64,000 nucleotides of DNA. Origin: Exiguobacterium sp. GTDB lineage: Bacteria > Bacillota > Bacilli > Exiguobacteriales > Exiguobacteriaceae. Each line of letters begins with the position of its first letter. The stretch's first letter is position 1. Location: NCBI RefSeq assembly GCF_020832205.1, contig NZ_JAFIFD010000003.1:62001-126000 (forward strand), written 5' to 3'. A model generated the notes under the pieces. That model did not search any database and was not told the DNA's origin. It worked only from the letters and a program-made list of their open reading frames with translations. The position numbers were made by a program, and so were the translations under genes. Below are positions 16,958 to 37,138 of the stretch, in pieces.

Positions 16958-17026
16958 ACAAAAAAAAGCCCGGAGATCGCTTCAGGCACTGAAAAACCTC
17001 CGCTTTATCCAAGCTGGAACAGAAAG

Positions 17027-17069
17027 AAGGGAGATTGGACCGACTCATGTCGGGACAATCTCCCTTTTT
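17027..17069 (+). terminator. hairpin terminator inside the intergenic cassette
   Basis: AAGGGAGATTG / CAATCTCCCTT encloses an inner CCGAC/GTCGG stem with a TCAT loop, followed by Ts. It lies 70 bases after the deacetylase stop codon. Confidence 0.8.
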
Positions 17070-17131
17070 CCATATTAATTGGTTAAAGCCAGTATATTTC
17101 GGAATGACGCGCACGTACAGCGCCGCCCGAG

Positions 17132-17229
17132 GGCACGCCGACTCCTGGGGAATCAGCGGGCAAGGCGAGACCCAGCAGCGATGCGGTCGCGATGCGGCTC
17201 GCTGCCCGCCCCCAGGAAAGCGGCGTGCC
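17132..17229. repeat. structured interspersed repeat, copy A
   Basis: A 98-bp imperfect hairpin. From outside inwards: GGCACGCCG/CGGCGTGCC, CCTGGGG/CCCCAGG, GCGGGCA/TGCCCGC and GCGAG/CTCGC, with the conserved loop segments GAGACCCAGCAGCG and GCGATGCGGCTC. A related copy lies at 36980-37075 with compensatory changes in two stems, so base pairing is conserved rather than sequence alone. No coding function. Confidence 0.8.
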
Positions 17230-17257
17230 GGACAGGGCGGCTCGAAGGGCGATGAAG

Positions 17258-17297
17258 GCAGAGGAGCGTCATCCCATCCGGGACGGCGCTCCTCTGC
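17258..17297. terminator. GC-rich hairpin downstream of repeat A
   Basis: An 11-bp perfect stem GCAGAGGAGCG / CGCTCCTCTGC with inner TCCC/GGGA pairing. It has only a weak T-rich tail (TTAAAATC), so termination is possible but unproven. Confidence 0.5.
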
Positions 17298-17349
17298 TTA
17301 AAATCATTTAAAGTTTTTCAGTGCCATCAGATCGCTGCGGGCATTTCGT

Positions 17350-36733: not shown

Positions 36734-36756
36734 CCAGCCGGTCATGGACCGGCTGG
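36734..36756 (-). terminator. hairpin after ywlG (T run on minus strand)
   Basis: Perfect 10-bp stem CCAGCCGGTC/GACCGGCTGG. On the minus strand it is followed by TTTTG, so it could block transcription arriving from the right. A similar hairpin lies at 37116-37136. Confidence 0.55.
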
Positions 36757-36765
36757 AAGTCTGTT

Positions 36766-36805
36766 GACGAACCTAATCGCATATCGCGATTGGGTTCGTC
36801 TTTTT
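36766..36805 (+). terminator. terminator of the prfA-ywlG cluster
   Basis: GACGAACC/GGTTCGTC with an inner ATCGC/GCGAT stem and an ATAT loop, then five Ts. Confidence 0.88.
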
Positions 36806-36979
36806 AATGTATGAATACCTTGAGGTGCTTTGTTCGACACAACGTGGTGGCGGCTTCTGACTACCGCATTATAACGCCTTCCGACCTAGGTAGAACATGA
36901 AACGGAGCCTTTGATTCTTAATTCGCATGTGGCGGCTATTTCTATCGGCCGTCGGGGACTCTCGCGTCGCTCATCCGAA

Positions 36980-37075
36980 GGCGCCGGAGACTCCTGAGGG
37001 ATCCAGCGAGCAAAGGGAGACCCAGCAGCGTATAGCGATGCGGCTCCTGCTCGCCCCTAGGAAAGCGGAGGCGCC
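36980..37075. repeat. structured interspersed repeat, copy B
   Basis: A 96-bp imperfect hairpin related to copy A at 17132. Outer arms GGCGCC/GGCGCC, then GCGAGCA/TGCTCGC and GGAG/CTCC, with the conserved blocks GACTCCTG, GAGACCCAGCAGCG, GCGATGCGGCTC and AGGAAAGCGG. Flanking CATCC (36972-36976) and GGATG (37080-37084) extend the pairing. The stem GCGAGCA/TGCTCGC replaces GCGGGCA/TGCCCGC of copy A, a compensatory change. The rest of 36806-37115 holds no gene I can support. Confidence 0.8.
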
Positions 37076-37112
37076 AAAAGGATGGGCGTGAGCATTTTGT
37101 TCGTCAATAAGC

Positions 37113-37138
37113 AACCAGCCGGTCCAACACCGGCTTAC
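37113..37138 (-). terminator. terminator of the esterase gene
   Basis: AGCCGGT/ACCGGCT stem with a CCAAC loop directly downstream of the minus-strand esterase stop; the tail on the minus strand is GGTTGCTT. Confidence 0.6.

What the first reader, a model, noticed from the sequence alone, without database searches (positions are those of the whole stretch)
17132..17229. Structured intergenic repeat, copy A, with covarying stems
A 98-bp hairpin with conserved internal blocks (GAGACCCAGCAGCG; GCGATGCGGCTC) recurs at 36980. Two stems differ between the copies by compensatory changes: GCGGGCA/TGCCCGC against GCGAGCA/TGCTCGC, and GCGAG/CTCGC against GGAG/CTCC. The outer stem also changes while staying paired. 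Selection on pairing implies a structured RNA or a DNA hairpin used by a transposase-like protein. I cannot match it to a named family with confidence.
Basis: seen in the sequence. Interest (0 to 1): 0.7.

Follow-up and report, generated by a model that had tools for sequence, protein, structure and literature searches.

The report
Conserved hairpin inside terminator-targeting mini-transposons
The repeated hairpin is a conserved folded segment from the start region of a jumping-gene family (IS1182) that inserts into bacterial transcription terminators; the two copies here sit inside small defective versions of two different such elements, and the same hairpin recurs across many Bacilli, where what it does is still unknown.

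Summary
The 98-bp hairpin at 17132-17229 and its partner at 36980 are real, compensatory and multicopy: 13 covariance-model hits in this Exiguobacterium genome, and hits in 18 of 19 genomes of the genus.

It is not a free-standing intergenic RNA gene at this locus. In sister species the same hairpin lies between one end and the transposase start of full-length, multicopy IS1182-family insertion sequences (1.70, 1.76 and 1.83 kb). Copy A lies in a 347-bp non-autonomous derivative (16982-17328) of one IS type; copy B in a 360-bp derivative (36756-37115) of another. Both sit in intrinsic terminators: A duplicated only the 8-nt loop (AGATCGCT), B the whole stem-loop. Relatives show the uninterrupted single terminator at both sites. 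The two copies covary because they descend from different transposons.

Stem-loop targeting is known for IS1182 (IS1272). I found no description of the hairpin, and no Rfam family covers it. It occurs in 80 of 300 Bacilli genomes (26 genera), antisense to the transposase in all 10 associated loci. G·U gains outnumber A·C gains (38:9; 25:8 in other genera), so one strand's fold is selected. Its function is inferred, not shown.

The parts
16968..16972 (.). left arm (GCCCG) of the original intrinsic terminator into whose loop mini-transposon A inserted
   Evidence: sequence; pairs with 17338-17342; uninterrupted terminator at the same place in relative G013 (L166)
16974..16981 (.). target duplication, left copy: AGATCGCT (terminator loop)
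   Evidence: exact 8-bp direct repeat with 17329-17336; same loop-duplication mode in group-2 full-length ISs
16982..17328 (-). mini-transposon A (347 bp), non-autonomous derivative of the group-2 IS1182-type element (L118 type); strand given is that of the lost transposase gene
   Evidence: ends TCAGGCACTGAAAAAC (16982-16997) / GTTTTTCAGTGCCATC (17313-17328) match IS ends GAGGGCACTGAAAAAC / GTTTTTCAGTGCCCTC
17029..17064 (+). stem-loop GGGAGATTGG..CAATCTCCC followed by TTTTT near the far end of mini-transposon A
   Evidence: sequence; not reported by the simple terminator scan
17258..17297 (-). second stem-loop GCAGAGGAGCG..CGCTCCTCTGC next to the transposase-proximal end, as in full-length L118
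17329..17336 (.). target duplication, right copy: AGATCGCT
17338..17342 (.). right arm (CGGGC) of the original terminator
36735..36755 (.). target duplication, left copy: whole terminator stem-loop CAGCCGGTCATGGACCGGCTG
   Evidence: 16 of 21 identical to the right copy, stems kept, loop diverged; boundaries good to about 2 nt
36756..37115 (-). mini-transposon B (360 bp), non-autonomous derivative of a group-1 IS1182-type element (L105/L137 type); strand given is that of the lost transposase gene
   Evidence: ends match IS ends TCAGCTTGTTGACTAAC and GTTCGTCAACAGCCTGA
36766..36800 (+). inward-facing terminator-like hairpin at the far end of B (GACGAACC..GGTTCGTC TTTTT), also present at the same end of full-length group-1 ISs
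36980..37075 (+). conserved hairpin, copy B
37116..37136 (.). target duplication, right copy: CAGCCGGTCCAACACCGGCTT

Best explanation
Shown: the hairpin is a conserved segment of IS1182-family insertion sequences, lying between the transposase-proximal end and the transposase start, on the strand opposite to the transposase. Copies A and B are parts of two mini-transposons (MITEs) that kept both ends and this hairpin but lost the transposase gene. Each sits in an intrinsic terminator: A duplicated the terminator's loop, B duplicated the whole stem-loop. Inferred: an IS1182 transposase acting in trans recognises folded terminator stem-loops and joins the element at the foot of the loop (A) or at the foot of the stem (B). 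Inferred, less sure: the hairpin works as a folded single strand of the antisense orientation, most likely an RNA that controls or insulates transposase expression, read by a host factor rather than by the cognate transposase.
For: Full-length multicopy ISs with the hairpin at one end; transposases score over the IS1182 cut-off (L118 332 bits, L138 490 bits, cut-off 270), and a plasmid copy is annotated IS1182. 18 of 19 group-1 ISs have exact direct repeats of 21-33 bp spanning a whole stem-loop; 6 of 6 group-2 ISs have 8-12-nt repeats, five of them inside a predicted stem-loop. Ends and target duplications of A and B match these groups. Empty single-terminator sites in relatives: site B in most of 19 genomes, site A in G013; in G005 the same site-B terminator was hit by a different, full-length IS (L147/L117). 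In 10 IS1182 transposase loci spread over 8 genomes (this one and seven others), the hairpin sits about 60-210 nt upstream of the transposase match and antisense to it. G-U gains exceed A-C gains 38:9 and 25:8.
Against: The role of the hairpin is untested: no transcript data, no promoter found by simple scans. Hairpin and inward terminator swap order between IS types, which does not fit a simple attenuator. About half of the IS1182 loci examined that keep the 5' part of the transposase have no hairpin detectable with model R1. The minus strand forms more G-U pairs in global minimum-energy folds, so the strand inference rests on the consensus pairs only. Copy B's target duplication is only 16/21 identical.
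Confidence: 0.88

Rival explanations
1. The hairpin is a cis-acting DNA site: one strand folds and is bound by the IS1182 transposase during transposition, as these transposases already recognise stem-loops in targets.
For: Retained in every short two-ended derivative seen, and present at both ends of about 560-600-bp derivatives built from two transposase-proximal ends. Right-end copies without the hairpin also lacked the other IS end. G-T is tolerated in folded DNA, so the strand bias fits too.
Against: Found at only one end of full-length ISs, at variable distance from that end (about 35-100 nt in Exiguobacterium, further in other genera); hairpin similarity does not follow transposase similarity (8 elements, Spearman -0.01). 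Short derivatives were found by searching for the hairpin, so retention is partly ascertained.
Confidence: 0.3
2. The hairpin is an independent selfish repeat that spreads by itself and is repeatedly captured by, or exchanged between, IS1182 leaders.
For: In one Bacillaceae genus it occurs as a sharply bounded 129-bp unit GTTGATT...AATCAAC with unrelated flanks, many copies per genome; also on Priestia, Bacillus badius and Planococcus plasmids. Very different transposases (20-24% identity) in Exiguobacterium carry nearly the same apical sequence.
Against: Fixed place and orientation relative to the transposase across genera argues for function in the IS. No empty site with a clear duplication was resolved for a free copy. 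In this window the hairpin is inside IS-bounded elements.
Confidence: 0.2
3. A REP/RAYT-type repeat mobilised by a Y1 (IS200/IS605-like) transposase.
For: Hairpin-forming intergenic repeat.
Against: No Y1_Tnp in the genome although the search detects it in 5 control genomes; the unit is about 350 bp with IS1182 ends and target duplications.
Confidence: 0.02
4. A stand-alone riboswitch or small RNA gene with a host function at these two loci.
For: Strong covariation and conserved loops.
Against: No Rfam match; not conserved in place (sites empty in relatives); part of mobile elements here.
Confidence: 0.03

Closest known systems
IS1182 family, IS1272 and TnSha1 of staphylococci (PMC5678879, PMC4923244)
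   Same: DDE transposase of the same family; inserts into stem-loops, often transcription terminators, without sequence consensus
   Different: IS1272/TnSha1 delete the target stem-loop and make no target duplication; here the whole stem-loop (group 1) or only the loop (group 2) is duplicated, the two outcomes drawn as alternative pathways b and c in the model of PMC5678879
[quoted passage not shown]
   Same: Short, no transposase, ends and target duplications shared with full-length ISs, multicopy
   Different: Carry a strongly covarying structured hairpin; some in sister species are built from two transposase-proximal ends
Bhal-1 stem-loop repeat family of Bacillus halodurans (PMC2267715)
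   Same: Listed there as a 74-bp intergenic family, 36 copies, with a conserved structure; could be a relative
   Different: Sequence not available to compare; no transposon link in the passages read
IS10 RNA-OUT / IS200 antisense RNA and leader hairpin (from memory)
   Same: Structured RNA of the opposite strand in a transposase leader that limits expression
   Different: Different families; no transcript or regulation shown here
IS110/IS1111 seekRNA or bridge RNA (PMC11187229)
   Same: Structured noncoding segment in an IS
   Different: Those ISs have DEDD transposases; here a DDE enzyme, and targets share structure, not sequence

Membership tests
IS1182 family (for the autonomous parents) | transposase matches NF033551 above its cut-off | tested here: met
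   L118 332 bits, L138 490 bits, own genome C45 487 bits; cut-off 270
IS1182 family (for the autonomous parents) | targets palindromes or terminators (known for some members) | tested here: met
   18/19 group-1 and 5/6 group-2 insertions in stem-loops
MITE of IS1182 elements (copies A and B) | both ends match an autonomous IS and no transposase gene is inside | tested here: met
MITE of IS1182 elements (copies A and B) | target duplication like the parent's | tested here: met
   A exact 8 bp in the loop; B whole stem-loop, 16/21
MITE of IS1182 elements (copies A and B) | empty site in relatives | tested here: met
   site B in most of 19 genomes, site A in G013
REP/RAYT repeats | Y1 transposase in the genome | tested here: not met
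IS110/IS1111 with seekRNA | DEDD transposase | tested here: not met
   Pfam finds DUF772 and DDE transposase domains
Known RNA family (Rfam 15) | match at gathering score | tested here: not met
   window and 20 loci with copies
Antisense RNA regulator | transcribed from the strand opposite to tnp | not testable with these tools
   no expression data; strand-biased G-U pairs only

The most novel reading that the evidence does not exclude
A class-wide, uncatalogued structured RNA (or single-strand DNA fold) of about 110-130 nt, encoded antisense in the leader of terminator-targeting IS1182 transposons of Bacilli, whose sequence follows the host genus rather than the transposase and which has also become a free dispersed repeat; it may link these transposons to a host factor.
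Probability: 0.35. Interest if true: 0.8.

Novelty: new variant of a known kind. Interest (0 to 1): 0.52.

Why it matters
It explains an abundant hairpin repeat of Bacilli by tying it to a transposon family, and gives clean natural examples of two target outcomes (whole stem-loop duplicated; loop only duplicated) that a published IS1272 model drew as alternatives. If the hairpin is an RNA, it would be a transposon regulator missing from Rfam that can be tested directly with strand-specific RNA-seq.

Tried and rejected
Rfam at gathering and relaxed thresholds: no credible match. REP/RAYT: no Y1 transposase. Exact-pattern scan suggested Exiguobacterium only; the covariance model showed this was too strict. 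Promoter scans found nothing useful around the hairpin. Literature searches for the sequence, for IS1182 MITEs and for Exiguobacterium ISs gave no description of the hairpin. The reading that hairpin plus terminator is an attenuator was dropped because their order differs between IS types. Comparing whole-hairpin energies of the two strands was ambiguous; base-pair gains counted on trees were clearer. An empty-site comparison for a free hairpin copy did not resolve a precise junction.

Full report
Observation. The two hairpins are at the stated coordinates, fold far better than shuffled sequence (copy A z -6.5, copy B z -2.7), and differ by compensatory changes. A model built from 28 copies gives 18 of 39 pairs with changes on both sides, 95.3% of cells paired, no shuffle as good, and collapse when the partner strand is slid by one column. 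The genome has 13 model hits; 18 of 19 genomes of the genus have 2-29; the 45 named exact-pattern hits are all Exiguobacterium.

What the unit is. Copies with near-identical scores in sister genomes were fetched with flanks. Similarity extends over 1.70, 1.76 and 1.83 kb, and each unit holds a DDE transposase that matches IS1182 (NF033551), with DUF772 and DDE transposase domains. A copy on an Exiguobacterium mexicanum plasmid is annotated IS1182 family transposase. The hairpin lies between the transposase-proximal end and the transposase start, on the opposite strand. The window's copies sit in short versions lacking the transposase: A, 16982-17328, has the ends of the L118 type; B, 36756-37115, has those of the L105/L137 type.

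Target. Rebuilding the sites of full-length ISs by removing the element shows 18 of 19 group-1 insertions with an exact duplication of 21-33 bp that is a whole stem-loop, usually with the A-run and T-run of a terminator; group 2 duplicates 8-12 nt, five of six times inside a stem-loop. Copy A: GCCCG-G-AGATCGCT | element | AGATCGCT-G-CGGGC, an 8-nt loop duplication. Copy B: the stem-loop CAGCCGGTC...GACCGGCTG on both sides, 16 of 21 identical with stems kept. Most relatives have one uninterrupted terminator at site B, and one (G005) has a full-length IS of another type in the same terminator (L147; L117). G013 has the uninterrupted terminator at site A (L166). Stem-loop targeting is known for IS1272 and TnSha1 (PMC5678879, PMC4923244), where the stem-loop is deleted; duplication of the stem-loop or of the loop alone appears there as alternative pathways in a model.

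Beyond the genus. The model hits 80 of 300 Bacilli genomes, 26 of 118 genera. In 10 IS1182 transposase loci from this genome and seven others the hairpin sits about 60-210 nt upstream of the transposase match and antisense to it. Across these genera 30 of 39 pairs have changes on both sides. In one Bacillaceae genus it is also a free 129-bp repeat bounded by GTTGATT and AATCAAC, and such copies occur unannotated or under 'hypothetical protein' on Priestia, Bacillus badius and Planococcus plasmids.

Strand and function. Counting changes on trees, G-U gains outnumber A-C gains 38 to 9 in Exiguobacterium and 25 to 8 elsewhere, in the orientation opposite to the transposase. Neutral decay of a DNA palindrome should give about equal numbers, so the fold of one strand is selected, as RNA or single-stranded DNA. 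Caveats: the model was built on that strand, and whole-hairpin minimum-energy folds put more G-U pairs on the other strand. The asymmetry is also seen in sequences chosen by exact apical pattern and not by the model (pair table; base-pair counts). Hairpin similarity does not follow transposase similarity: elements with 20-24% identical transposases in Exiguobacterium share the same apical sequence, while 64%-identical transposases in other genera have different hairpins. That comparison rests on eight elements. I read this as a folded module exchanged between elements or matched to the host, most likely an antisense regulatory RNA or insulator of the transposase (about 0.45), with a transposition cis site (0.3) and an independent selfish module (0.2) as rivals. 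None of these is shown.

Noticed in passing
L125-L131, L134-L136 (G017, G014, G002): About 560-600-bp derivatives with two hairpins in inverted orientation, built from the transposase-proximal ends of two different IS types.
   Followed up: partly
L203-L242, L231:395-523; genus of G293: The hairpin occurs as a sharply bounded free 129-bp repeat (GTTGATT...AATCAAC), many copies per genome, without IS1182 ends.
   Followed up: partly
L147/L117 (G005:C1:877027-881000) and window 36735-37136: The same convergent-gene terminator was hit independently by a full-length IS in one species and by mini-transposon B in this one.
   Followed up: yes
L105 265-1898; L137 2346-3958: Group-1a transposases are split into two frames in several genomes, which may be a programmed frameshift or an old lesion.
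   Followed up: no
L119: One group-2 insertion has an 8-bp target duplication but no evident stem-loop at its target.
   Followed up: no
L112: One group-1 IS has no exact target duplication; its left palindrome copy looks partly lost.
   Followed up: no
L003 (G000:C45:126839-129957, beyond the window end): A third copy, 96% like copy A, lies next to decayed pieces of a group-2 IS1182 transposase.
   Followed up: partly
G000 contig ends C28, C49, C52 (L007-L009): Three contigs of this assembly end inside the hairpin of the same IS type, so further full-length copies are probably collapsed in assembly gaps.
   Followed up: no
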